Shown here: positions 9,693 to 63,461 of the stretch, piece after piece | How the letters are laid out: each line of letters begins with the position of its first letter | Numbering within the stretch: position 1 is the stretch's first letter | Source: Citrobacter sp. FP75 | GTDB taxonomy: Bacteria; Pseudomonadota; Gammaproteobacteria; Enterobacterales; Enterobacteriaceae | DNA: 64,000 nucleotides | NCBI RefSeq assembly: GCF_018342065.1 | Contig: NZ_JAFDOE010000001.1 | Coordinates: 186,001-250,000 of the forward strand | Reading direction: 5' to 3' | Position numbers and translations under genes: made by a program | The notes under the pieces: generated by a model | The model's database searches: none | What the model saw: the letters and a program-made list of their open reading frames with translations, nothing else | Told to the model about the DNA's origin: nothing

Positions 9693-10619
9693 TCAATCGC
9701 GTGAGTTGTTGAAAATTGCTAAAAACCCGGCGATTTCAGATTTTCGTTGGGTGAACAGCGTGACAATATCTTCAACGGCCTTACCCGCGCCAAACTTATG
9801 CCACGCGAGACTTAAGGGAGAAGGGGGACGCATGGTGGGAATGATGTTGCTGACCAGCTGGCCGCTATCGAGCAACGGTTGGCAGAGCGGCTGCGGAACG
9901 AATCCAATACCGACTCCCGCAAGATGAGCAGCAAGCTTGGTTTCCATGTCCGGGACGATGATCTCTTTTTGACCGGGAAGACGCCATGCGACCCGTTTAC
10001 TCAGGGTCCGCGCGCTATCCTCAATGTTAATAGCCGGAAAACGGCGCAGCTGCGCTTCTGTTAATGGACCGCTGGCGTCTGCCAGTGGATGATCCGCTGA
10101 CATAACAAATCGCCACTGAACAGAACCCAAAGGATCGAGGGTAAAGGTGTTGGTCATCGGTTCCGTGCCGGTAACGCCGATAGCCAGCGAGAATCCTTCA
10201 TACAAGAGTGAATCCCACACGCCCATATAAATTTGCCGGGAAAAGTGAAACTGAGTAAAGGGATAGCGGGCGTTAAGCCAGGATAACAGGTGAGCGACGG
10301 CTTCAGGGCTGTACAGCAGGTTGTTAACCACAATATTCACCTGGCGCTCTACACCGTCGTTCACTTGCTGCAATTCGCTGGGCATGCTGTCCAGCCAGGC
10401 GAGCCAGTCTTTTGCCTGAGAAAGAAGGTGAGATCCTGCTGCGGTTAACGTCACGCTTCGGGTAGTGCGAAAAAATAACGCGACGCCGGTGTTTTCCTCC
10501 AGAAGCTTTATACGGTAACTGATGGTGGCTGTGGTTTTGCACAAGCGCTCCGCCGCCCTGGAGAAACTCCCCGTTTCGGCGACGCCGATAAAGGTACGCA
10601 GTGTTTCCGGGTCAAACAT
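9693..10619 (-). CDS. allS: AllS, LysR-type activator of allantoin genes
   Basis: The 308-residue product matches the E. coli AllS length. The N-terminal winged helix-turn-helix ([20 protein letters not shown]) is typical of LysR regulators, followed by the effector-binding domain. In E. coli AllS activates allDCE under anaerobic conditions with allantoin as nitrogen source. It is divergent from allA. The AllR operator at 10726-10742 lies between them and probably controls both directions. Confidence 0.95.
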
Positions 10620-10725
10620 CGTCAGCTACTCCTTTAATGATCTTCTACAAGCCTGATTTCTTGTTCTCTGATTTATAAGTATTTTTGCATAATGGCCTTG
10701 TTCAAATTGTGGTCTAAATCTAGTT

Positions 10726-10742
10726 TTGGAAAATTTTTCCAA
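10726..10742. promoter_or_regulatory. AllR operator in the allS-allA intergenic region
   Basis: TTGGAAAATTTTTCCAA is a perfect 17-bp palindrome with a single central base. The identical 17 bases recur just upstream of gcl (12274-12290). This is the known core of E. coli AllR sites. It sits 105 bp upstream of the allA start and 107 bp upstream of the allS start. Glyoxylate binding to AllR relieves repression. Confidence 0.9.
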
Positions 10743-10846
10743 TTTTTGTGTTGATGTTAAATCACGAAGGTTTTAGATTGCATGGTATTGAAGCCGCTAA
10801 GTGTTCTGGTTGCGGTTTAGAGGAATTCAGTTACAAGGAAATAATG

Positions 10847-11329
10847 ATGAAACTTGAGGTCTTACCGTTAAATCAGCACACGTTCAGCGCCTATGGCGAT
10901 GTCATCGAGACGCACAAACGTGATTTTTTTCATATCAATGATGGGCTCGTTGAACGTTATCACGATCTGGCCAATGTGGAGATCCTTAAGCAGGATCGCA
11001 CCCTCATCAGTATCAATCGCGCGCAACCGGCAGCAACGCCGATTGTTGTGCATGAGTTGGAGCGCCACCCGTTAGGTACCCAGGCATTTATGCCGATGAA
11101 TGGCGAAGCGTTTGTGGTGATTGTCGCACTCGGTGAGGACAAACCGGACCTTTCCACCTTAAAAGCCTTTATCACCAATGGACAACAGGGCGTGAATTAC
11201 CACCGAAATGTCTGGCATCACCCGTTGTTTGCCTGGCAAACCGTAACCGATTTTCTGACCGTCGATCGCGGCGGCAGCGATAATTGCGATGTTGAAAGTA
11301 TCCCGACGCATGAGCTCTGTTTTGCGTGA
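10847..11329 (+). CDS. allA: AllA, ureidoglycolate lyase
   Basis: AAGGA at 10835-10839 precedes two adjacent ATGs at 10844 and 10847. Starting at 10847 gives MKLEVLPL and exactly 160 residues, as in E. coli AllA; longer in-frame extensions upstream have no support. The enzyme splits (S)-ureidoglycolate into glyoxylate and urea, the aerobic branch of allantoin breakdown. The glyoxylate feeds the Gcl pathway encoded downstream and also acts as AllR inducer. The cupin-like fold segment [12 protein letters not shown] is well conserved. Confidence 0.96.
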
Positions 11330-11404
11330 CGCTATCGGCCTTCTTGCTTAATATGCGCATATTGTTCATTGTTTATGCTCATATTTTGGGCCGGAGTAAG
11401 CGTA

Positions 11405-12226
11405 GTGGAGACGGAAGTAAGACGGCGTGGCAGGCCTGGACAGGCGGAGCCAGTTGCGCAGAAAGGCGCTCAGGCGCTTGAGAGAGGCATTGCGATTTTG
11501 CAGTATCTCGAAAGAAGTGGAGGCAGTTCGTCAGTGAGCGATATTTCCGCCAGTCTGGATTTACCGCTCTCTACGACTTTTCGCCTGTTGAAGGTTTTAC
11601 AGGGTGCTGATTTTGTCTATCAGGACAGCCAGTTAGGCTGGTGGCACATTGGTTTAGGCGTATTTAACGTGGGCTCCGCGTATATTCATAATCGCGACGT
11701 CCTGTCGGTAGCCGGACCGTTTATGCACCGATTAATGCTGCTGTCAGGCGAAACGGTTAATGTCGCGATTCGCAATGGCACCGAAGCGGTGTTGATTGGT
11801 CAGAAGGAGTGCAAATCGATGGTCAGAATGTGCGCACCTTTAGGCAGTCGTATGCCGTTACATGCTTCCGGCGCGGGAAAAGCGCTGCTTTATCCGTTGA
11901 TGGAAGAAGAGTTAATGGACATCGTCGTGAAAACGGGTTTGCAGCAGTTTACGCCGACCACGTTGGTGGATTTTCCTACTCTGCTGCGTAATCTGGAACT
12001 GGCGCGTGAGAATGGTTATATCATCGATCACGAAGAACATGTTATTGGTTTGAATTGCATCGCATCAGCTATCTATGACGATGCAGGCAGTGTCGTTGCT
12101 GCCATCTCTATTTCGGGGCCCGCATCCAGACTGACGGAAGATCGTTTTATCAGTCAGGGAGAGCTGGTACGGGATACTGCACGAGATATCAGTACGGCGC
12201 TGGGTTTAAAAGCCCCCGTAGCTTAA
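11405..12226 (+). CDS. allR: AllR, IclR-family repressor of the allantoin/glyoxylate regulon
   Basis: The likely start is GTG at 11405, preceded by GGAG at 11393-11396 with 8-bp spacing. It gives 273 residues beginning (M)[11 protein letters not shown], against 271 in E. coli. A longer reading from 11369 adds a hydrophobic stretch not found in the family. The N-terminal winged helix ([20 protein letters not shown]) is followed by the IclR effector domain that binds glyoxylate and allantoin. An intrinsic terminator follows. It represses gcl and allS/allA through the two 17-bp palindromes in this window. Confidence 0.94.
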
Positions 12227-12233
12227 GTCGCAA

Positions 12234-12258
12234 CCCGCTCAGAGGAGCGGGACTTTTT
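12234..12258 (+). terminator. Intrinsic terminator after allR
   Basis: CCCGCTC (12234-12240) pairs with GAGCGGG (12245-12251) across an AGAG loop, followed by ACTTTTTT. It insulates allR from the gcl promoter 20 bp further on. Confidence 0.9.
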
Positions 12259-12273
12259 TGGATTTTTTCAAAG

Positions 12274-12290
12274 TTGGAAAATTTTTCCAA
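12274..12290. promoter_or_regulatory. AllR operator at the gcl promoter
   Basis: TTGGAAAATTTTTCCAA, identical in all 17 bases to the site at 10726-10742. It ends 19 bp before the gcl start codon, so bound AllR would sit on or near the transcription start. In E. coli the gcl promoter carries the same type of AllR site. Confidence 0.92.
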
Positions 12291-12309
12291 TAAATAGAGG
12301 TAGAAAGAA

Positions 12310-14091
12310 ATGGCAAAAATGAGAGCCGTTGACGCGGCAATGTATGTGCTGGAAAAAGAAGGCATCACCACCGCATTTGGGGTTCCGGGGGCGGCAATTA
12401 ACCCGTTCTATTCCGCAATGCGTAAGCACGGAGGCATCCGTCACATTCTGGCTCGTCACGTTGAAGGCGCTTCCCATATGGCGGAAGGCTATACGCGTGC
12501 GACGGCAGGAAACATTGGCGTCTGCCTTGGCACTTCTGGCCCGGCAGGCACTGACATGATTACTGCGCTGTATTCCGCTTCTGCCGATTCTATTCCTATT
12601 TTATGCATCACCGGCCAGGCGCCTCGCGCTCGCCTGCATAAGGAAGATTTTCAGGCTGTTGATATTGAATCTATTGCCAAACCGGTCAGTAAAATGGCGG
12701 TAACGGTGCGTGAAGCCGCGCTGCTTCCTCGGGTTTTGCAGCAGGCATTTCATGTAATGCGCTCTGGTCGTCCTGGTCCGGTATTGATCGATTTGCCTTT
12801 TGATATTCAGGTTGAAGAAATTGAATTCGATCCAGACATGTATGAACCGCTGCCAATCTACAAGCCTGCGGCCAGCCGCAAACAGATTGAGAAAGCGCTG
12901 GAAATGCTGGTTCAGGCTGAGCGCCCGGTCATCGTGGCTGGGGGCGGGGTGATTAATGCTGATGCCAGCGAACTGTTGCAACGCTTTGCTGAATTAACCA
13001 ACGTACCGGTAATTCCTACGCTGATGGGCTGGGGATGCATCCCGGACGATCATGAGTTAATGGCCGGAATGGTGGGGTTACAAACGGCGCATCGTTACGG
13101 CAACGCCACGCTGCTAGCCTCCGATATGGTGTTCGGTATTGGTAACCGTTTTGCGAACCGACACACCGGTTCCGTTGCGAAATATACCGAAGGACGCAAA
13201 ATCATTCATATCGATATTGAGCCGACGCAAATTGGCCGCGTTCTTTGCCCGGATTTAGGCATCGTTTCTGACGCTAAAGCCGCGCTGACTTTGCTGATTG
13301 ACGTTGCTCAAGAGATGCAGAAAGCCGGGCGTTTACCTTGTCGGAATACCTGGGTTGATGAATGCCAACAGCGTAAGCGGACGTTACTGCGTAAAACCCA
13401 CTTCGACAATGTCCCGGTTAAACCGCAGCGTGTGTATGAAGAGATGAATAAAGCCTTCGGTCGCGATGTCTGCTACGTCACTACCATTGGGTTATCGCAA
13501 ATTGCCGCCGCGCAAATGCTGCACGTATTTAAAGAGCGCCACTGGATCAACTGCGGTCAGGCTGGCCCTCTTGGCTGGACGCTGCCGGCGGCATTAGGGG
13601 TTTGTGTTGCCGATCCTGCGCGCAATGTTGTTGGGATTTCCGGCGATTTTGACTTCCAGTTCCTGATCGAAGAGCTGGCGGTGGGCGCGCAATTCAACAT
13701 TCCTTATATCCATGTTCTGGTCAACAACGCCTATCTCGGCCTGATTCGCCAGTCGCAGCGCGCTTTTGATATGGATTACTGCGTCCAACTAGCGTTCGAA
13801 AATATCAACTCCAGCGAAGTAAACGGTTATGGCGTCGATCACGTCAAAGTGGCAGAGGGATTAGGCTGTAAAGCCATTCGCGTGCTCAAGCCGGAGGATC
13901 TTGCTCCGGCATTTGAACAAGCCAAAGCCCTGATGGCGCAGTATCGCGTTCCGGTTGTCGTCGAAGTGATACTCGAGCGTGTGACGAACATCTCTATGGG
14001 TAGCGAACTGGATAATGTGACCGAGTTTGAAGAGATTGCAGACGGTGCGACCGATGCGCCAACCGAAACCTGTTTTATGAAATACGAATAG
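12310..14091 (+). CDS. gcl: Gcl, glyoxylate carboligase (tartronate-semialdehyde synthase)
   Basis: The 593-residue ThDP enzyme condenses two glyoxylates into tartronate semialdehyde plus CO2. The ThDP-binding motif runs from GDFDF (445) to the NN pair near 471-472. At position 51 (ARHVEGASH) there is a valine where other ThDP enzymes have the activating glutamate, the signature peculiarity of glyoxylate carboligase. Length equals E. coli Gcl. First gene of the glyoxylate operon; a 12-bp gap separates it from hyi. Confidence 0.97.
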
Positions 14092-53627: not shown

Positions 53628-54431
53628 TTAGTCTGCCAGCACGATCACATCCCCCGTTGCAGGAGCATTTGTTCCAGGTAGCCACAATCGCCCCCATGAA
53701 CCGGTGCAGTGACAGCCGAGAACCGTGTCTGGTTTTTGTTGCTTAATAAATTGCCGTGTCTGCCATAGCTTAAAGGGCGACGCCGTGCGTAAATGAAATC
53801 CGCCGATCAGGGCGTGGATCTTTGTCATGCCGGTAATATTTTGACAATGGCGGACGATGTTTTCTATTCCCCGATGCCCGCAGCCGGTAATGATGACTAA
53901 CCCGCGCTCAGATTTATAGATCAATACACCTTCGTCGCTAATGTAATCCGGTTGGGGGGACTGTCCGTGAATAACGCCATAGGCTTGCGGAGCGGGCACG
54001 CTAATTTCGCCGGACCACAAAAAACGCTCACTAATGGCCAACGGTTCGCGGGTGTATTCCATAATGAGTCGAGAGTAGTCGTTATCGCGGGAGAGTTTTT
54101 TTATTTTTCGCGACGTTCCCGCGAAGTTTAGTGAGGCGTAACGCTCGCAGGCGATTTGAGGATGGCAAATGATACGACTGTTATCCGCAAGCCACGGCAC
54201 GCCGCCACAGTGATCATAATGGCCGTGCGAAAGTACCACGGCGGTAAGCTGCGATAAATCAACGCCCATTCGCGCGGCGTTCAGCATAAAGCTGTCATCC
54301 GGCCCGGTATCGAACAGGATAGTGGTTGTTTCATCCTGGACTAACAGACTTAATCCAGGCTTTGCCCGTAATGATGTATCTGCGCCAGCAGCGCGTCTGT
54401 TTTCAAGCAATACCGTCAGGGTTAACGCCAC
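53628..54431 (-). CDS. Metallo-beta-lactamase-fold hydrolase, COG1237 type
   Basis: The 267-residue protein starts at a GTG (54431) with GGAG upstream. The metal motif HGHYDH is at about 70-75, a second His region at TGCGHRGIEN and a third at GGFHL, with a late GCHCTGSW. This is the pattern of the 7,8-dihydropterin-6-methyl-aminobenzene-phosphate-synthase-like family. Substrate unknown. No signal peptide, so cytoplasmic. It lies between torYZ and the cus region with no clear link to either. Confidence 0.78.
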   Translation of the reverse strand: MALTLTVLLENRRAAGADTSLRAKPGLSLLVQDETTTILFDTGPDDSFMLNAARMGVDLSQLTAVVLSHGHYDHCGGVPWLADNSRIICHPQIACERYASLNFAGTSRKIKKLSRDNDYSRLIMEYTREPLAISERFLWSGEISVPAPQAYGVIHGQSPQPDYISDEGVLIYKSERGLVIITGCGHRGIENIVRHCQNITGMTKIHALIGGFHLRTASPFKLWQTRQFIKQQKPDTVLGCHCTGSWGRLWLPGTNAPATGDVIVLAD

Positions 54432-54477
54432 GTCTGACTCCAGTATTAAAACGGCATACTGTAGCGCAGGGTATTTG

Positions 54478-54503
54478 AGAGCGTTGTGATCGCAACGCTC
54501 TTT
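54478..54503. terminator. Hairpin downstream of the SilE-like gene
   Basis: AGAGCGTTG (54478-54486) pairs with CAACGCTCT (54493-54501), followed on the plus strand by TT. It separates the SilE-like gene from the metallo-beta-lactamase gene; its T-tract is weak in both directions. Confidence 0.5.
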
Positions 54504-54514
54504 AGCGTTATCCG

Positions 54515-54727
54515 TTATCGCGCACGATTTGCCTGGGCGCGGTGTTTTTCCGCTTGCTGTTCATGGGCATAGGAATGACCATTATTCATCGACTGATGTA
54601 CGACCATCGCTTTCTCATGTTCATTCATTTGTGCAAATGATTGTGCGTGAGGTGACGTTTCTGCCGCATTAACGCCAGCTGAAATAAAAAATGCGATAGC
54701 TAAAAAAGAGGACATCTTATTCATCAT
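54515..54727 (-). CDS. Short SilE/PcoE-like periplasmic silver/copper-binding protein
   Basis: The 70-residue product (69 if the second of two adjacent ATGs is used; AGGAG suits the second slightly better) has a signal peptide cut near VNAA (22). The mature part is about 48 residues. MNEHEKAMVVHQSMNNG (34-50) closely resembles the SilE repeat MNEHERAAVAHEFMNNG as I remember it. It carries the metal motifs MX2H (34-37) and HX2M (44-47), plus His51, 55 and 62. SilE has more than one such unit; this protein has one. It follows cusS on the same strand, as silE follows silRS. Confidence 0.8.
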   Translation of the reverse strand: MMNKMSSFLAIAFFISAGVNAAETSPHAQSFAQMNEHEKAMVVHQSMNNGHSYAHEQQAEKHRAQANRAR

Positions 54728-54755
54728 ATTTCTCCTGTGTGAGTTTACGGAAGAA

Positions 54756-54809
54756 ATTATAATTAGCGAGGACTGTCAGCGGCGTGACAAGATTATGACG
54801 GTTATGTCA
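54756..54809 (-). promoter_or_regulatory. Promoter of the SilE-like gene with CusR-like half-sites
   Basis: On the minus strand a perfect TATAAT occupies 54761-54756. Upstream, TGACGGTTATGTCA (54796-54809) fits the CusR core TGACA-N4-TGTCA with one mismatch, and further TGTCA and TGACA half-sites lie at 54774-54778 and 54785-54789. No good -35 hexamer is present, which suits activator-dependent transcription. Confidence 0.55.
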
Positions 54810-54836
54810 GAGAATAAATAAAAATACCCGGTCGTC

Positions 54837-54864
54837 ACCGGATGGCGTATTTGCGCCATCCGGT
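54837..54864. repeat. REP-like hairpin downstream of cusS
   Basis: ACCGGATGGCG (54837-54847) and CGCCATCCGGT (54854-54864) form a perfect 11-bp stem of REP character, 4 bp past the cusS stop. On the minus strand a T-rich stretch (54816-54825) follows some 15 bp later, so it may also help termination. Confidence 0.7.
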
Positions 54865-54868
54865 AGGG

Positions 54869-56320
54869 TTAAATCGCATGTTTTGGCAGCGTCAGAATAA
54901 AACGGGTGGCGCGGGCGTCGGAGGTGACAGCCACTTTCCCCTGGTGGGCCGTAACAATCGATTTCACAATCGCCAGGCCAATGCCGCTACCTTCGCCTTT
55001 ACGCTGTCGTGACGGGTCCACGCGATAGAAACGATCGAAGAGTCGCGGAAGATGTTCTGCGGCGATGGGGTTTCCGGGGTTCTCGACGATAATCTGTACT
55101 TGGCCATCTGCCTCTTTAACTCGCACGGTCACCGACTGGCCTTTGGGCGTGTAGCGCATAGCGTTAGACAGCAGATTGCTCAGGGCTCTGCGCAGCATTA
55201 ACGGATCGCCAGACACCCAGCATGCGCGGCCCTCAAAGCGTAAACTGACCTCGCGCTCTTCTGCCCAGGCCTCGAAAAAGTCAAACACCTTACCGACTTC
55301 ATCCGCTAGGTTGAGCGCTGTCTTTTCCGGGATTAGCTGATTGTTGTCTGCCTGTGCCAGGAACAGCATATCGCTCACCATCTTCGACATCCGGCCAAAC
55401 TCTTCGAGATTGGAATAGAGCACATCTTCCAGTTCTTTCTGGCTACGGGGCTGGCTGAGCGCAATTTCCGTTTGTGTGACCAGGTTGGTGATGGGCGTGC
55501 GGATCTCATGGGCAATATCCGCTGAGAAATTGGACTGGCGTTTAAATACGTCCTCGATACGTTCGATCATGTGATTAAACGAACTCACCAGTTGTTCCAG
55601 TTCAATAGGAACGGCTTGGGGATCCAGGCGCACATCAAGATCTTTCGAGGTGATATTTTGGATGCGGCGACTGACATTACGGATCGGTTCATGACCTTTA
55701 TAAACGGCGAACAGCACGATAAAAACAATCATCATGCTAATTATCGATGCCGTCATAATCAGTTTGTTTTTCAGATCGTTAATATAATGCAGATGGAAAT
55801 CTATCGATAACGCTATATACAGCGTCAAGGCCGGTTTACCGTCCGCTAACTGGCCCACAGGCAAACGAATCATTCGCCAGTTGGAGGGGCTGTTTTGCCC
55901 GTGATCGTGATTCTGCGTGCGTAGCGTGGGGCCGGAGATTAAAAAGACGTTATTGTTACGGGCATTTTTATCCGGTGTCGCACTGGCGATAAATTGGCGC
56001 AGATCCGGCGCGCCAGGTGAATGGAAAATGGCCTTATGGTTGGTATCTTCCAGCGAAATAATGACGTTAGAGTAGCCGGAAACCACATTTTTTAGGGTTT
56101 CCAGCCGGCGGGATTCGGGTTCGTTGGGTTGATTGAGGATCCGTTCCAGCGTGGTGCTTATTTCTCTTAAATCGTTGATATCCTGCTCGGCAAAATGGAC
56201 CTTCACGGAGTGGATCATTATCCAGGCGAAGGCGAAAAATGAGGCGATGGTCGCCAGACTGATAAAAAAGGTCAGGCGCGTTGCCAGCGAAAAGGGGCGT
56301 TGCAGGCGCTTAATTGCCAT
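54869..56320 (-). CDS. cusS: CusS, copper/silver-sensing histidine kinase
   Basis: Starting at 56320 ([16 protein letters not shown]) gives 483 residues (E. coli 480) and an 11-bp overlap with cusR. It has two membrane helices flanking a periplasmic sensor, a HAMP domain, the H-box [12 protein letters not shown] with His271, and N, G1 (GSGIGLAIV) and ATP-lid boxes. The His-Phe after the first helix (VKVHF) and the His before the second (SIDFHLH) are retained. The Met/His-rich loop of E. coli is replaced by [17 protein letters not shown], with fewer Met and His. Confidence 0.94.
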
Positions 56321-56993
56321 CTGGCACCTCAAGCATATATCCCACACCGCGCACGGTCTGAATCAGCTTCGGTTCAAAATCATTATCAATTTTAGCGCGC
56401 AGGCGCTTCACGGCGACGTCAATCGCATTGGTGTCGCTGTCAAAATTCATGTCCCAGACCTGCGAGGCAATCAGCGAGCGGGGCAACACTTCCCCCTGAT
56501 GGCGCAGGAAAAACTCGAGCAGCGTAAATTCTTTGCTGGTGAGGGTAATGCGGGTGCCGCTGCGGGTGACTTTTCGGCTGACCAGATCGACCATTAAATC
56601 CGCAACCTGAAACTGACTCTCGACAATCACCGCCGCTCCGCGACGCAGCAACGTTCTGACTCGCGCCAGCAGTTCGGCAAAGGCAAACGGTTTAACCAGG
56701 TAATCATCCGCCCCCAATTCCAGACCTTTGACCCGGTGTTCAATCGTACCCAGCGCGGTGAGGAGTAGAATCGGCATGCCTTTGCTGGCACTGCGCAGCA
56801 TACGCACGATATCCCAACCGTTCACGTCAGGCAGCATGATGTCGAGAATGATCAGGTCATAATCAGCGGTCATAGCCAGGTGATACCCGTTCAGGCCGTT
56901 ATCTGCCAAATCGACAACAAAACCGGCTTCCGTCAGGCCCTTAGTCAGGTACTCGCCGGTTTTTTTCTCATCTTCGACGACCAAAATTTTCAT
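56310..56993 (-). CDS. cusR: CusR, response regulator of the cus system
   Basis: Starting at 56993 ([20 protein letters not shown]) gives 227 residues, as in E. coli; five extra upstream codons are open. The OmpR-type receiver has its phosphoacceptor in [13 protein letters not shown] (Asp51). The winged helix includes [13 protein letters not shown] and [15 protein letters not shown]. It binds the palindrome at 57070-57091 to activate cusCFBA and its own operon in response to Cu(I) and Ag(I). Confidence 0.96.
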
Positions 56994-57069
56994 CACTTTC
57001 TCCTTCACCCACTGGCTGTGCGGGTTTCAATTCTAGAGAAGCGGGATCGGATAGCAATGAGTTATTGGG

Positions 57070-57091
57070 AAAATGACAGCTTTGTCATTTT
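57070..57091. promoter_or_regulatory. CusR box between cusR and cusC
   Basis: AAAATGACA (57070-57078) and TGTCATTTT (57083-57091) are perfect inverted repeats around GCTT. This matches the E. coli CusR box with TGACA-N4-TGTCA core. It lies 77 bp before the cusR start and 84 bp before the cusC start, serving both operons. Confidence 0.92.
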
Positions 57092-57174
57092 ACTGTCACC
57101 GCTTAAACAGAGTCGATTCGATAAGATGCACGGTAATAAATTCACATTCCAGTCCGGTTTGGACGAAAAGAACT

Positions 57175-58557
57175 ATGTGCAAATTTAAGCTTCTTACCCT
57201 CAGTGTTGTTTTTATTCTGGCCGGTTGTTCGCTGGCGCCGGAGTATCAGCGTCCGGCAATGCCGGTGCCGCAGCAATTCTCCTTAAGCCAGAATGCGCTG
57301 GTTCCGACACCTCAGGGATATCAGGACACGGGCTGGCGCACCTTTTTCGTTGACGATCAGGTGAAAGCGCTGATTGGCGAGGCGCTGCTGAATAACCGTG
57401 ATTTACGCATGGCAACCCTGAAGGTTCAGGAAGCAAGAGCACAATATGGGGTGACGGATGCAGACCGCTATCCACAGCTTAATGCTGGCTCCAGCGGCAC
57501 TTATAGCGGAAAATTTAAAGGTGATACCAGCACGCAGAAAGAATTTGAGGCTGGACTGAATCTCAGTTTCGATTTGGATTTCTTCGGACGGCTGAAAAAT
57601 ATGAGTGAAGCCGAACGACAGAATTTCTTTGCCAGCGAAGAAGCGCGCCGGGCGGTGCATATCTTATTAATTTCCAACGTGTCGCAAAGTTATTTCAACC
57701 AGCGCCTGGCTTACGCACAGTTGCAAATCGCCGAAGAAACGCTGCAAAACTATCAGCGCTCTTATGCCTTTGTCGAAAAACAACTGCTAACGGGAAGTAC
57801 CAATGTCCTGGCGCTGGAACAGGCGCGGGGTGTGATTGAAAGTACGCGCGCCGATATCGCAAAACGTAAAGGCGAACTGGCGCAGGCGAATAATGCGCTG
57901 CAGCTGCTGCTGGGCACCTACGGGAAATTACCGGATGACCGGGCGCTCAGCCGCGGTGATATTAACGCGGTGACGCTGCCGCCGTCGCTCCCGTCACAAA
58001 TACTGCTCCAGCGTCCGGATATTTTAGAAGCCGAGCATGCGTTAATGGCGGCAAATGCCAATATCGGTGCCGCGCGGGCGGCTTTTTTCCCATCTATTAC
58101 GCTTACCAGTTCGGTATCTGGCAGCAGTAGCGAGCTCTCCAGCTTATTTAATGCCGCCAGCGGCATGTGGAATTTCGTGCCCAAAATTGATATTCCGATT
58201 TTTAACGCTGGACGTAACCAGTCAAATCTCGATTTGGCCGAAATACGCCAGCAGCAGTCGGTAGTGAATTACGAACAAAAAATCCAGAACGCGTTTAAAG
58301 AAGTGGCGGATGCACTGGTGCTGCGCCAAAGTCTGGCAGATCAAATTACCGCTCAGCAGCGCTATCTGGACTCTTTGCAAATCACGCTGCAACGCGCCAG
58401 AGCGCTCTATCAAAATGGTGCAGTCAGCTATATCGAAGTACTGGACGCAGAGCGTTCTTTATTCGCTACCCGGCAATCGTTGCTCGATCTTAATTATGCC
58501 CAGCAGGTTAATGAAATTAAGCTGTTTACTGCCCTGGGCGGCGGTTGGGTGGAATAA
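57175..58557 (+). CDS. cusC: CusC, outer-membrane channel of the CusCBA efflux pump
   Basis: The ATG at 57175 gives 460 residues beginning MCKFKLLTLSVVFILAGC. The lipobox LAGC places the lipidated Cys at 18, as CusC is a lipoprotein. The TolC-like two-fold repeat is visible, for example NNRDLRMATLKVQEARAQY and LLQRPDILEAEHALMAAN. An earlier in-frame start at 57073 would lie within the CusR box and is rejected. It forms the outer-membrane exit duct for Cu(I)/Ag(I). Confidence 0.95.
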   Translation: MCKFKLLTLSVVFILAGCSLAPEYQRPAMPVPQQFSLSQNALVPTPQGYQDTGWRTFFVDDQVKALIGEALLNNRDLRMATLKVQEARAQYGVTDADRYPQLNAGSSGTYSGKFKGDTSTQKEFEAGLNLSFDLDFFGRLKNMSEAERQNFFASEEARRAVHILLISNVSQSYFNQRLAYAQLQIAEETLQNYQRSYAFVEKQLLTGSTNVLALEQARGVIESTRADIAKRKGELAQANNALQLLLGTYGKLPDDRALSRGDINAVTLPPSLPSQILLQRPDILEAEHALMAANANIGAARAAFFPSITLTSSVSGSSSELSSLFNAASGMWNFVPKIDIPIFNAGRNQSNLDLAEIRQQQSVVNYEQKIQNAFKEVADALVLRQSLADQITAQQRYLDSLQITLQRARALYQNGAVSYIEVLDAERSLFATRQSLLDLNYAQQVNEIKLFTALGGGWVE

Positions 58558-58589: not shown

Positions 58590-58937
58590 ATGAATACTAC
58601 CGTCAAAGCCGCATTATTGAGTCTTTTCTCTGTGGTTATATTTAATGCTCAGGCCAGTGAGCATCAGCATGGCGAAATGATGAATATGCAAACTGCTGCC
58701 CAGCAGGGACAAATTATCAGCGCTACTGGCGTGATTGAATCTATTGATACGGCAAGCAAAAAAATCACCATCAAGCATGAACCTATTCCGGCGGTGAACT
58801 GGCCTGCCATGACCATGCGTTTTACGCTGGTCCCGGAAACAAAGGCTGATGATATTAAGCCCGGCGATAAGGTTGCCTTTACCTTTGTTCAACAGGGAAA
58901 CCTCTCTGTATTACGTGATATTCACGTCAGTCAATAA
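58590..58937 (+). CDS. cusF: CusF, periplasmic copper/silver chaperone
   Basis: The 115-residue protein has a signal peptide ending AQAS. The OB-fold metal site is intact: His in IKHEPIP, Trp in VNWPAM and the two Met of AMTM, the residues that bind Cu(I)/Ag(I) in E. coli CusF. The N-terminal mature part adds HQHGEMMNM, rich in His and Met. It delivers metal to CusB. AGGAG precedes the ATG. Confidence 0.96.
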   Translation: MNTTVKAALLSLFSVVIFNAQASEHQHGEMMNMQTAAQQGQIISATGVIESIDTASKKITIKHEPIPAVNWPAMTMRFTLVPETKADDIKPGDKVAFTFVQQGNLSVLRDIHVSQ

Positions 58938-59013
58938 CGTCGTTCGCAGGTCTCTTTTATTCTCACCCGCCTTCCCTGAACGCGGGTGAGACACTCGCGC
59001 AATGGAAATCACT

Positions 59014-60306
59014 ATGGCGTCTTTAAACATTAAAAATACCGCGCTTATTCTTGCCAGCATGATTATCGGTGGAGTTATTTCTGTCGGTATATATCCTTAT
59101 TTGTCATCAGCAAACGTCTCGACCGACAGCGGCTCCGCTACGCAAAAAGAGGCGCGTAAAGTGCTGTTCTGGTATGACCCAATGTACCCGAATACGCGTT
59201 TTGATAAGCCGGGTAAATCGCCGTTTATGGATATGGATCTGATCCCGAAATATGCCGATGAAGAGACCGCGAGCGACTCAGCTGCAAGCGTGCGAATCGA
59301 TCCAACGCAAACCCAAAATCTGGGGCTAAAAACAGAGGCCGTGCGCCGCGGGCCGTTGCAGTATGCACAAACTTTCCCGGCCAACGTCAGCTATAACGAA
59401 TATCAGTTTGTCATTGTGCAGGCGCGTTCTGCGGGTTTTATCGAAAAAGTGTATCCATTGACCGTCGGAGACAAAATTAAAAAAGGCGCGCCGCTGATTG
59501 ATCTGACCATCCCCGACTGGGTTGAAGCGCAGAGCGAATATCTGCTGCTGCGTGAAACCGGCGGTACCGCCACCCAGGTCGACGGTATTCTCGAAAGATT
59601 ACGTCTGGCCGGGATGCCCGAGCAGGACATCCAGCGCTTAAAATCGACCCGTCAAATTCAGACCCGCTTCACCCTGCGCGCCCCCATCGATGGGGTAATC
59701 ACTGCCTTTGATTTGCGCACCGGCATGAACATTTCGAAAGATAACGTGGTGGCAAAAATTCAGGGAATGGATCCGGTGTGGGTCAGCGCGTCTGTCCCGG
59801 AATCTATCGCCTGGCTGATTAAAGACGCCTCGCAGTTTACGATTACCGTACCCGCCTGGCCGGATAAAACGTTCACCATCAGCAAGTGGAGTATTTTGCC
59901 GAGCGTGGATGCCACAACGCGCACCCTCCAGTTGCGTTTGCAGGTCGAAAACCCTGACGAGGCGCTCAAGCCGGGTATGAATGCTTACCTCAAGCTAAAA
60001 ACACAAAGCGAGCCGATGCTGCTGATCCCGTCCAAAGCGCTGATTGATACCGGCAGCGAGCAGCGGGTGATAACCGTCGATAACGATGGGCGCTTTGTGC
60101 CGAAGCAGGTTGCCGTATTCCATGAATCTCAGGGGCTAACGGCTATCCGTTCCGGCCTGACGGAAGGTGAGAAAGTCGTCTCCAGCGGTCTGTTCCTGAT
60201 TGATTCCGAGGCGAATATTTCCGGTGCGCTGGATCGGATGCGCGCCTGGAAGAGTGGTGCGCAAGATGCCCCCGCAATGCCAGCCCCGGCGACCCATTCA
60301 CACTGA
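59014..60306 (+). CDS. cusB: CusB, periplasmic adaptor of the CusCBA pump
   Basis: The ATG at 59014 has GGAA 6 bp upstream and gives 430 residues; the ATG at 59002 lacks such a site. A signal/anchor helix (residues ~8-28) is followed by the metal-binding N-terminal segment FWYDPMYPNTRFDKPGKSPF and MDMDL with the conserved methionines. Barrel-sandwich, beta-barrel and membrane-proximal domains follow. It receives metal from CusF and bridges CusA and CusC. E. coli CusB has 407 residues; the extra length is mostly at the N-terminus and a C-terminal Ala/Pro-rich tail. Confidence 0.95.
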   Translation: MASLNIKNTALILASMIIGGVISVGIYPYLSSANVSTDSGSATQKEARKVLFWYDPMYPNTRFDKPGKSPFMDMDLIPKYADEETASDSAASVRIDPTQTQNLGLKTEAVRRGPLQYAQTFPANVSYNEYQFVIVQARSAGFIEKVYPLTVGDKIKKGAPLIDLTIPDWVEAQSEYLLLRETGGTATQVDGILERLRLAGMPEQDIQRLKSTRQIQTRFTLRAPIDGVITAFDLRTGMNISKDNVVAKIQGMDPVWVSASVPESIAWLIKDASQFTITVPAWPDKTFTISKWSILPSVDATTRTLQLRLQVENPDEALKPGMNAYLKLKTQSEPMLLIPSKALIDTGSEQRVITVDNDGRFVPKQVAVFHESQGLTAIRSGLTEGEKVVSSGLFLIDSEANISGALDRMRAWKSGAQDAPAMPAPATHSH

Positions 60307-60317
60307 GGATATAACAA

Positions 60318-63300
60318 ATGATTGAATGGATTATTCGTCGCTCGGTGGCTAACCGTTTTCTGGTGATGATGGGGGCGCTGTTCCTTAGCATCTGGGGAAC
60401 ATGGACCATCATCAACACCCCCGTGGATGCGCTGCCGGATCTCTCTGATGTGCAGGTGATTATCAAAACCAGCTATCCGGGACAGGCTCCGCAAATCGTT
60501 GAGAACCAGGTCACTTATCCTCTGACCACTACCATGCTGTCGGTGCCCGGTGCGAAAACGGTGCGCGGCTTCTCGCAGTTTGGCGACTCTTATGTGTATG
60601 TGATTTTTGAAGATGGCACCGACCCATACTGGGCACGCTCCCGCGTACTGGAATATCTCAACCAGGTGCAGGGGAAATTACCAGCAGGCGTCAGTGCGGA
60701 AATGGGGCCGGATGCCACCGGCGTCGGCTGGATCTTTGAATATGCGCTGGTGGACCGCAGTGGTAAACACGATCTGGCCGAATTACGGTCTCTGCAGGAC
60801 TGGTTTTTAAAGTATGAGTTAAAAACGATCCCCAACGTAGCGGAAGTGGCTTCGGTAGGCGGCGTGGTCAAAGAGTACCAGGTTGTTATCGATCCGATGA
60901 AGTTGACGCAATACGGTATCAGCCTGTCTGAGGTGAAATCGGCGCTGGATGCGTCTAACCAGGAGGCGGGCGGTTCCTCCGTGGAGATGGCGGAAGCGGA
61001 ATACATGGTGCGTGCCAGCGGGTATCTGCAAACCCTCGATGACTTCAACACTATTGTGCTGAAATCCGGGGCTGACGGTGTACCTGTGTATCTGCGCGAT
61101 GTCGCGCGCGTGCAGATTGGGCCGGAAATGCGCCGTGGGATCGCCGAACTGAATGGCGAAGGTGAAGTGGCTGGCGGCGTTGTGATTCTGCGCTCGGGTA
61201 AAAATGCGCGTGAGGTCATCTCCGCCGTTAAAGACAAACTCGAGACGCTGAAAAGCAGCCTGCCGGAAGGCGTTGAGGTAGTTACAACATACGATCGCAG
61301 CCAGCTTATTGACCGCGCGATTGATAACCTGAGCTACAAGCTGCTGGAAGAGTTCATCGTTGTGGCGCTGGTGTGCGCGCTGTTCCTGTGGCATATCCGC
61401 TCGGCGCTGGTGGCGATAATCTCCCTGCCGTTGGGGTTGTGTATTGCGTTTATCGTGATGCATTTCCAGGGGCTAAACGCCAACATTATGTCGCTTGGGG
61501 GAATCGCTATTGCGGTGGGGGCGATGGTCGATGCCGCGATTGTAATGATTGAAAACGCGCATAAGCGGCTGGAAGAGTGGGAGCATCAGCATCCGGGTGA
61601 AAAGCTGGATAACGCCACGCGCTGGCAGGTGATCACCAACGCCTCGGTGGAAGTGGGACCGGCGCTATTCATCAGTTTACTGATTATTACCCTGTCGTTT
61701 ATCCCTATTTTTACCCTTGAGGGACAGGAAGGGCGACTGTTTGGCCCGCTGGCGTTCACCAAAACCTATGCCATGGCCGGCGCGGCGTTTCTGGCGATTG
61801 TGGTGATCCCAATCCTGATGGGATTTTGGATCCGCGGCAAAATCCCGGCGGAAAGCAGCAACCCGCTTAACCGTTTCTTAATTCGTATTTACCATCCGCT
61901 GCTGCTGAAGGTACTGCACTGGCCGAAGGCCACCCTGCTGGTGGCGGTGCTGTCGATCCTGACGGTTATTTGGCCACTGAATAAAGTTGGCGGCGAATTC
62001 TTACCGCAGATCAACGAAGGCGATCTGCTGTATATGCCGTCGACCCTGCCGGGGATTTCGGCGGCGCAGGCGGCGGATATGCTGCAAAAAACCGACAAGC
62101 TGATCATGACCGTCCCGGAAGTGGCGCGTGTGTTTGGTAAAACCGGCAAGGCTGAAACCGCCACCGATTCCGCGCCGCTGGAAATGGTTGAAACCACCAT
62201 TCAGTTGAAACCGCAGGATCAGTGGCGTCCGGGAATGACGATGGACAAAATCATTGAGGAGCTGGATAAAACGGTTCGGCTGCCGGGGCTGGCAAACTTG
62301 TGGGTGCCGCCGATTCGTAACCGCATCGACATGCTCTCTACCGGGATCAAAAGCCCAATCGGGATTAAGGTGTCGGGCACTGTGCTGGCGGATATTGACG
62401 CCACGGCCGAGCAAATCGAAGAAGTGGCCAGAACCGTGCCCGGCGTCGCCTCCGCATTGGCGGAACGTCTGGAAGGCGGGCGCTATCTTAGCGTCGATAT
62501 TCAGCGTGAAAAGGCTGCGCGTTATGGCATGACGGTAGGTGATGTACAGCTATTCATTACCTCGGCGGTAGGTGGCGCGATGGTAGGCGAAACGGTTGAA
62601 GGAATTGCCCGCTACCCGATCAACCTTCGCTATCCGCAAAGCTATCGCGACAGCCCGGAAGCGTTACGACAGCTGCCGATCCTGACGCCAATGAAGCAGC
62701 AGATAACGCTGGCCGATGTGGCGGATGTGAAGGTTGTTTCAGGCCCGTCGATGCTGAAGACCGAGAACGCGCGACCGACCAGCTGGATTTACATCGATGC
62801 CCGCGATCGCGACATGGTTTCGGTGGTGAACGATCTGAAAAAAGCGATTGCTGAGAACGTCCAGCTAAAACCGGGGACCAGCGTGGCGTTTTCGGGGCAG
62901 TTTGAGCTGCTCGAACGCGCCAGCCATAAGCTCAAACTGATGGTGCCGATGACGCTGATGATCATCTTTGTGCTGTTGTATCTGGCGTTCCGTCGTTTTG
63001 GTGAAGCGCTGCTGATTATCACCAGCGTGCCGTTCGCACTGGTGGGCGGGATTTGGTTCCTCTACTGGATGGGATTCCATATGTCGGTAGCGACCGGGAC
63101 CGGATTTATTGCGCTGGCAGGCGTTGCCGCTGAGTTCGGTGTGGTTATGCTGATGTATCTGCGCCACGCCATCGAGGCGGAGCCTGCGCTGGAAAATCCG
63201 CAGACCTTTACGGTCGCTAAGCTGGATGAGGCGTTATACCACGGGGCGGTGCTTCGCGTGCGTCCCAAAGCGATGACCGTGGCGGTGATTATTGCTGGCC

Positions 63301-63461
63301 TGTTGCCGATTTTATGGGGAACCGGGGCCGGGTCTGAAGTGATGAGCCGGATAGCCGCCCCGATGATTGGCGGTATGATCACTGCGCCGCTGCTGTCGCT
63401 GTTTATCATCCCTGCGGCCTATAAGCTGATGTGGCTGCACCGACATCGTCCGCAGAAATAA
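60318..63461 (+). CDS. cusA: CusA, inner-membrane RND pump for Cu(I)/Ag(I)
   Basis: The 1047-residue protein equals E. coli CusA in length. It has 12 transmembrane helices and two large periplasmic loops. The three-methionine metal site is present at exactly the E. coli positions: Met573 ([10 protein letters not shown]), Met623 (LEMVETT) and Met672 (RIDMLSTG). The proton-relay region [20 protein letters not shown] is intact. It exports Cu(I)/Ag(I) through CusB and CusC. It is the last gene of cusCFBA. Confidence 0.97.

What the first reader, a model, noticed from the sequence alone, without database searches (positions are those of the whole stretch)
54515..54809. A one-repeat SilE-like protein appended to a chromosomal cus locus
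The 70-residue gene downstream of cusS matches the repeat unit of the silver/copper-binding protein SilE (MNEHEKAMVVHQSMNNG against MNEHERAAVAHEFMNNG, the latter from memory). It has one MX2H and one HX2M motif and a signal peptide. Gene order cusR-cusS-silE-like mirrors silRS-silE on resistance plasmids, while cusCFBA is divergent just as silCFBA is. CusR-like half-sites lie upstream of a perfect TATAAT. The locus could represent an ancestral or intermediate form between cus and sil, with a minimal metal sponge of under 50 residues.
Basis: partly seen in the sequence, partly recalled or inferred. Interest (0 to 1): 0.75.

Follow-up and report, generated by a model that had tools for sequence, protein, structure and literature searches.

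The report
Small silver-binding-like protein beside cus
A Citrobacter's built-in copper and silver pump comes with a tiny relative of the silver-binding protein SilE that is probably switched on together with the pump; the short version seen here looks like a trimmed form of a longer gene and seems to be swapped between Citrobacter species.

Summary
ORF 54515-54727(-), 70 aa, is a real SilE/PcoE-family protein (SilE profile E=4.6e-11, but 43 bits against a cut-off of 200, so not a SilE equivalog). Its promoter has the 54-bp layout of cusC, pcoE and silE, found only twice in 64 kb and never in 100 shuffles.

"Ancestral or intermediate between cus and sil" is not supported. All 17 genomes of the window's genus carry the gene: 11 two-repeat, 6 one-repeat including this one. 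Salmonella relics keep repeat 1 in 2 of 3 genomes, so the short form is probably a deletion product. CusS and CusA trees place the locus inside Citrobacter, away from sil.

Two points go further. The six short alleles form one clade (100/99), but cus and housekeeping genes reject it: a roughly 300-bp promoter-plus-gene cassette appears to move between species. And 35 of 35 cus/sil loci with SilE-like genes after cusS have the CusR-type promoter there; 3 of 42 without also have it, beside DUF305 or CusF genes.

Likely role (inferred): CusR-induced periplasmic Cu(I)/Ag(I) buffer. Binding and regulation are untested.

The parts
54515..54727 (-). SilE/PcoE-like gene, 70 aa, one repeat
54662..54727 (-). 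Putative signal peptide (about 21-22 residues; by eye, no predictor run)
54533..54637 (-). His/Met repeat, residues 31-65; His at five positions invariant in 17 of 17 Citrobacter alleles
54732..54736 (-). Ribosome-binding site AGGAG
   Evidence: sequence
54756..54809 (-). CusR-type promoter of the SilE-like gene: TGAC-N6-GTCAT-N6-GTCAC-N22-TATAAT
54826..54843 (-). Terminator-like hairpin between cusS and the SilE-like gene (2 such sites in the 700-bp scan, shuffles mean 0.7: weak)
54518..54804 (.). Segment that follows the short-allele lineage instead of nearest relative G376: 43 informative sites against 5; flanks 4 against 15. Ends approximate and chosen after seeing the data
54869..56347 (-). 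cusS (family model starts at residue 10 of this ORF)
56310..57008 (-). cusR
57074..57127 (+). CusR-type promoter of cusCFBA, same layout
57073..58557 (+). cusC ORF as listed; family model starts at residue 35, so the true start is probably near 57175
58590..58937 (+). cusF
59002..60306 (+). cusB
60318..63461 (+). cusA

Best explanation
The gene is a CusR-controlled cassette in the slot just downstream of cusS. It encodes a small secreted, probably unstructured protein of the SilE/PcoE family. Cu(I) or Ag(I) in the periplasm activates CusS; CusR then activates both cusCFBA and this gene through the same promoter layout; the mature peptide of about 48 residues binds one or two ions through its His/Met repeat and buffers metal until CusF and CusCBA export it. 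The one-repeat form arose by in-frame loss of repeat 1 (39 residues in most comparisons) from a two-repeat Citrobacter gene, and a segment of about 300 bp with promoter and gene has passed between Citrobacter species by homologous recombination. Shown by sequence: homology, promoter layout, purifying selection, two alleles, tree conflict. Inferred: secretion, regulation, binding, buffering, hand-over to the pump.
For: Homology. Promoter: same half-sites and spacing as cusC, pcoE and silE; 2 in 64 kb, 0 in 100 shuffles. PMC11195947 (passages) states that E. coli CusR binds AAAATGACAAnnTTGTCATTTT and directly controls pcoE, whose promoter has TGACAAnnTTGTCAT. Association: of 79 loci, 35 of 35 with a SilE-like gene after cusS have the promoter within 350 bp (30 exact, 5 with one mismatch); of 42 without, 39 have at least 4 mismatches and 3 are exact, beside DUF305 or CusF genes; 2 were cut too short. 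Selection: dN/dS 0.11 over 15 short-allele pairs. Binding precedent: SilE peptide AMNEHERAAVAHEFMNNGQ, with M, H, H and M in the same register, binds Ag+ at two sites, KD1 <1 uM and KD2 24.5 uM (PMC10080550, passages). Function precedent: silE in a derepressed cusS strain raised the silver MIC from 4 to >256 mg/L (PMC4356207, passages). Exchange: six short alleles one clade at 100/99 on 301 columns; held together they are rejected by cusSR (p-AU 3.3e-10), cusC-A (8e-7) and gyrB+mutS+leuS (1.5e-43). The window is 93.8% identical to G376 and 85.2% to G399 over cus, but 82.7% and 93.8% over the module.
Against: No binding, expression or phenotype data for this protein. SilE equivalog cut-off not met (43.2 of 200 bits). 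The Met of the HX2M motif is replaced in 6 of 17 alleles. C. freundii ATCC 8090 gained no silver tolerance in 42 days of passage (PMC4356207 section 16); whether that strain has this gene was not tested, but if it does, cus plus the gene is not enough. AlphaFold2 model weak: mean pLDDT 62.2, pTM 0.27. Repeat 1 was not found in the stretch of the third Salmonella-type relic (L088). For short-allele genomes G401 and G396, 15 and 13 of 39 bins favour another short-allele genome, because these two are also neighbours in the cus tree; the clean contrast is in the window (1 of 40), G394 (3 of 39) and G399 (4 of 39). The short/long grouping and the tract ends were chosen after seeing the data, so the p-values are descriptive.
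Confidence: 0.75

Rival explanations
1. Ancestral or intermediate form: a cus locus on the way to sil, with the one-repeat protein as the primitive SilE.
For: Same gene order and promoter layout as silRS-silE; single repeat.
Against: The window's CusS and CusA nest in Citrobacter, sil elsewhere; two-repeat alleles in 11 of 17 genomes of the genus and repeat 1 in 2 of 3 Salmonella-type relics.
Confidence: 0.05
2. Feedback partner of CusS: the peptide mainly removes metal from, or contacts, the CusS sensor domain and so resets the kinase, as ZraP does for ZraSR (ZraP recalled, from no call), rather than feeding the pump.
For: Position after cusS with its own CusR-type promoter; PMC5008109 proposes that SilE signals to or binds SilS (passages).
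Against: silE added to a cus strain raised silver tolerance strongly (PMC4356207), which fits buffering or hand-over; most cus loci sampled do without such a gene (42 of 79).
Confidence: 0.15
3. Decaying remnant: a deletion left a non-functional piece of a two-repeat protein.
For: A whole repeat is missing; Salmonella-type genomes have broken copies.
Against: Six of six short alleles open and 70 aa, dN/dS 0.11, five His invariant, promoter exact in 17 of 17.
Confidence: 0.05
4. The short/long pattern is old shared polymorphism, or repeated identical deletions, not recent exchange.
For: Trees alone cannot exclude retained polymorphism; only 17 genomes.
Against: Short alleles are less diverged than their genomes (module 93.8% against cus 85.2% for the window and G399), share the junction and the 83-bp gap to the next gene (6 of 6), and form one clade.
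Confidence: 0.15

Closest known systems
PcoE (plasmid copper-binding protein, pcoABCDRSE)
   Same: His/Met repeat protein downstream of a sensor-kinase gene; its last repeat is the closest named match (62.8% over 43 columns; score 136); same promoter layout and offset to TATAAT; reported to be controlled by chromosomal CusRS (PMC5008109 and PMC11195947, passages).
   Different: 144 aa with two full repeats and a degenerate one, against 70 aa and one repeat; on a sil/pco island rather than at cus.
SilE (NCBIfam NF047789)
   Same: Same repeat and ligand register, same place after the sensor gene, same promoter layout.
   Different: 143 aa, two full repeats; the window protein scores 43 bits against a cut-off of 200; sil CusS/CusA lie elsewhere in the trees.
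E. coli CusRS/CusCFBA
   Same: Same operon layout and cusC promoter; CusR 97% and CusA 93% identical.
   Different: No SilE-like gene after cusS; nfrB follows (one genome).
Other one-repeat SilE-family ORFs of 74-76 aa
   Same: One repeat each (L074, L080, L082, L083, L090).
   Different: Only L074 (same place as L157) lies directly after a cus-type cusS on the same strand; its CusS is 68% identical. L082 lies on the other strand near a cus locus; L080, L083 and L090 do not follow one.

Membership tests
SilE/PcoE family (broad) | His/Met repeat homologous to SilE/PcoE beyond chance | tested here: met
SilE/PcoE family (broad) | Exported to the periplasm | not tested
   signal peptide by eye only
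SilE/PcoE family (broad) | Binds Ag(I)/Cu(I) and folds to helix on binding | not testable with these tools
   precedent from SilE peptide SP3; low-confidence helix 36-69 in the model
SilE equivalog (NCBIfam NF047789) | Profile score of at least 200 bits | tested here: not met
   43.2 bits; the own genome's PcoE scores 148.6 and the two-repeat allele 64.1
SilE equivalog (NCBIfam NF047789) | Part of a sil locus | tested here: not met
   cus locus inside the Citrobacter clade
CusR regulon | CusR box core TGAC-N6-GTCA with the cusC/pcoE spacing to the -10 | tested here: met
CusR regulon | CusR-dependent metal induction | not testable with these tools
   needs a reporter or RNA measurement
cus-to-sil intermediate | Sensor and pump branch between cus and sil | tested here: not met
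   (quick trees, midpoint root)

The most novel reading that the evidence does not exclude
The site behind cusS is a general, exchangeable cargo slot of the cus system: a complete CusR promoter plus a gene for a periplasmic Cu/Ag binder (SilE family with one to three repeats, DUF305, or CusF). Citrobacter species trade alleles of this cassette with different repeat numbers by homologous recombination, so that metal-buffer capacity is tuned without touching the pump; the sil and pco islands would be mobile versions of the same arrangement.
Probability: 0.35. Interest if true: 0.65.

Novelty: new variant of a known kind. Interest (0 to 1): 0.5.

Why it matters
PMC4356207 (passages) treats SilE as the one essential Sil component without a direct counterpart in the Cus system, and uses that to explain why sil but not cus gives silver resistance without porin loss. 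Here 17 of 17 genomes of the window's genus carry such a counterpart at cus, so that explanation can be tested by deleting it. It also bears on that paper's puzzle that C. freundii did not gain silver tolerance on passage. If the slot idea is right, the promoter pattern is a handle for finding unknown Cu/Ag-binding proteins; it already pointed to DUF305 and CusF genes.

Tried and rejected
The intermediate cus-to-sil reading: rejected on the CusS and CusA trees. Decay: rejected on dN/dS and conservation. Chance low-complexity similarity: rejected by shuffles. No solved structure matches at E up to 10. The sigma-70 scanner found no promoter with a -35 in 54300-55000, which fits an activator-dependent promoter but proves nothing. 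(housekeeping tree) was wrong because loci on the minus strand were not turned; it was discarded and redone. Rows left out: of 82 CusS match rows, I fetched 60 as L109-L168, already held 6 Citrobacter rows and the own sil row, and left out 12 near-identical sil rows and 3 fragment rows (G108 twice, G238). CusA trees lack 7 of 79 loci whose stretch did not hold enough of the gene. L161 and L162 count as 'without' because their SilE-like gene lies upstream of cusR, not after cusS. The control drew random windows from the same loci, so its 29 exact and 2 one-mismatch hits of 1580 may be the real sites; none had 2 or 3 mismatches. Prior description: nine literature searches gave no paper that I saw describing a SilE-like gene at a Citrobacter cus locus; most results were seen as listings only, the library holds open-licence papers only, and Genome Biol Evol evw031, which I wanted, is not held.

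Full report
WHAT IS THERE. ORF 54515-54727(-) encodes MMNKMSSFLAIAFFISAGVNAAETSPHAQSFAQMNEHEKAMVVHQSMNNGHSYAHEQQAEKHRAQANRAR. It has a plausible signal peptide (by eye) and one His/Met repeat. It matches NCBIfam SilE at E=4.6e-11 over residues 18-66 against profile 92-140 of 143, i.e. the last repeat only, at 43.2 bits against a cut-off of 200; Pfam has no family for it. Against the own genome's PcoE and SilE the mature peptide scores 136 and 115, and 0 of 2000 shuffles reach either. The gene follows cusS on the same strand, with cusR beyond and cusCFBA divergent. The same genome also holds a sil/pco island on contig C23.

PROMOTER. Upstream lies TGACATAACCGTCATAATCTTGTCAC, then 22 bp, then TATAAT. 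Written as TGAC-N6-GTCAT-N6-GTCAY-N22-TANNNT, this layout is shared by cusC of the window and of E. coli (with TAAGAT and TAAAGT as -10), by pcoE and by silE. In 64 kb it occurs twice, here and at cusC, and in none of 100 shuffles. PMC11195947 (passages) gives the E. coli CusR site as AAAATGACAAnnTTGTCATTTT and says that CusR directly controls pcoE through TGACAAnnTTGTCAT. In the 17 Citrobacter alleles TGAC and GTCA do not vary while the six bases between them do.

DISTRIBUTION. 49 of 392 genomes of the family have a match at E up to 0.001, many from sil/pco islands. In the window's genus it is 17 of 17: 11 with a two-repeat protein of 107-115 aa, 6 with a one-repeat protein of 70 aa. I collected 79 cus or sil loci (17 Citrobacter, one E. 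coli, the own sil, 60 others; rows left out are listed under Tried and rejected). 35 have a SilE-like gene after cusS on the same strand, 42 do not, 2 are cut too short to tell. Outside Citrobacter and sil these are seven loci of five genus groups (L154, L155 and L163; L157; L158; L159; L160). On the CusS tree, presence or absence needs at least 8 changes.

THE SLOT. Within 350 bp after cusS the promoter layout is exact in 30 and one mismatch off in 5 of the 35 SilE+ loci. Of the 42 others, 39 have at least 4 mismatches, which is what random stretches give, and 3 are exact. In those three, the genes just behind are a DUF305 protein (L144), DUF305 plus a CusF-like protein (L135) and a CusF-like protein (L131). 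L145 has a SilE-like gene followed by open frames that resemble the DUF305 protein by eye. So the place after cusS looks like a slot for a CusR-driven periplasmic metal-binder gene. Many of the 35 loci are close relatives, so they are not 35 independent cases.

NOT AN INTERMEDIATE. In the CusS tree (79 rows, quick method) the 17 Citrobacter rows are one clade (99) and the 11 sil rows one clade (96) on the other side of the tree, among cus loci of other genera. In the CusA tree (72 rows) Citrobacter is again one clade (98); the sil rows are not one clade (3 changes) but stay on the far side. Roots are midpoint only.

SHORT AND LONG ALLELES. The short alleles lack repeat 1 and its linker, 39 residues in most comparisons. 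Salmonella-type genomes keep a broken relic of the gene beside cusA fragments (3 of 3), a cusS fragment (1 of 3) and the same AraC-type gene (3 of 3); 2 of 3 hold a clear repeat 1 (17/23 and 18/23 identical to the Citrobacter one), and in the third I found none in the stretch examined. By parsimony the long form is older. The short form is not decaying: dN/dS is 0.11 over 15 pairs; in all 17 alleles five His and two Met of the repeat are invariant, while the Met of the HX2M is not (11 of 17).

EXCHANGE. On 301 columns of promoter and gene the six short alleles are one clade (100/99). Held together on other data they are rejected: cusSR p-AU 3.3e-10, cusC-A 8e-7, gyrB+mutS+leuS 1.5e-43. By housekeeping genes the window pairs with long-allele genome G376 (100/100). 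Over cus the window is 93.8% identical to G376 and 85.2% to G399; over the module it is 82.7% and 93.8%. Along the locus, a short-allele genome beats the nearest long-allele relative by more than 2 points in 1 of 40 bins for the window, 4 of 39 for G399, 5 of 39 for G319, 3 of 39 for G394, but 15 and 13 of 39 for G401 and G396, which are also neighbours in the cus tree. At sites that separate at least four of five other short alleles from G376, the window sides with the short alleles 43 to 5 inside 54518-54804 and 4 to 15 outside (the ends were chosen after looking, so Fisher p=1.2e-7 is descriptive). All six short alleles are followed by the same 83-bp gap to the MBL-fold gene; in long-allele genomes the gap is 149-1222 bp where the MBL gene was found (7 of 11), often with other genes between.

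HOW IT MOST LIKELY WORKS. CusS senses periplasmic Cu(I)/Ag(I), CusR turns on cusCFBA and this gene, and the peptide binds metal in the periplasm until the pump exports it. Precedents: SilE motifs MxxHxxxxxHxxMxx and HxxMxxxHxxMxx, unstructured until Ag+ binds (PMC5008109, passages); the 19-residue SilE peptide SP3, equivalent in register to window residues 33-51, binds Ag+ at two sites (PMC10080550, passages); silE added to a cus strain raised the silver MIC from 4 to >256 mg/L (PMC4356207, passages). The AlphaFold2 model shows one low-confidence helix, 36-69 (mean pLDDT 62.2). None of this has been tested for the window's protein.

AGAINST. PMC4356207 reports no gain of silver tolerance in C. 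freundii ATCC 8090 (section 16); I could not check its locus. The equivalog cut-off is not met. The number of genomes is small.

NOVELTY. The protein family, the promoter type and the cus locus are known. A SilE counterpart as a fixed part of Citrobacter cus, a one-repeat allele spreading as a small cassette, and the post-cusS slot with alternative metal binders were not seen in the papers I searched (open-licence library, mostly listings). Hence a new variant of a known kind, interest 0.5.

Noticed in passing
   Followed up: partly
L144, L135, L131, downstream of cusS: Exact CusR-type promoter followed by DUF305 and/or CusF-like genes instead of a SilE-like gene.
   Followed up: partly
L073 about 10412-13660 (own genome, contig C23): silE of the own sil locus lies about 2.7 kb from silS, with a partial silE start and a run of N near silS; perhaps an insertion or an assembly gap.
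   Followed up: no
L072 14931-15380 (+): Third SilE-family ORF, 149 aa, on the sil/pco island of the own genome.
   Followed up: no
L080, L082, L083, L090: 76-aa one-repeat SilE-family ORFs; in L082, L083 and L090 with a distant CusR/CusS-like pair in the same stretch.
   Followed up: no
L161, L162: SilE-like gene (122 aa) with an exact CusR-type promoter upstream of cusR rather than after cusS; no CusA found in the stretch.
   Followed up: no
between the SilE-like and MBL-fold genes in long-allele genomes, e.g. L097 10716-11219: Extra genes (167-175 aa without an NCBIfam family and with only a sub-threshold Pfam match; 77-88 aa lipoprotein-like) that are absent in the six short-allele genomes.
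   Followed up: partly
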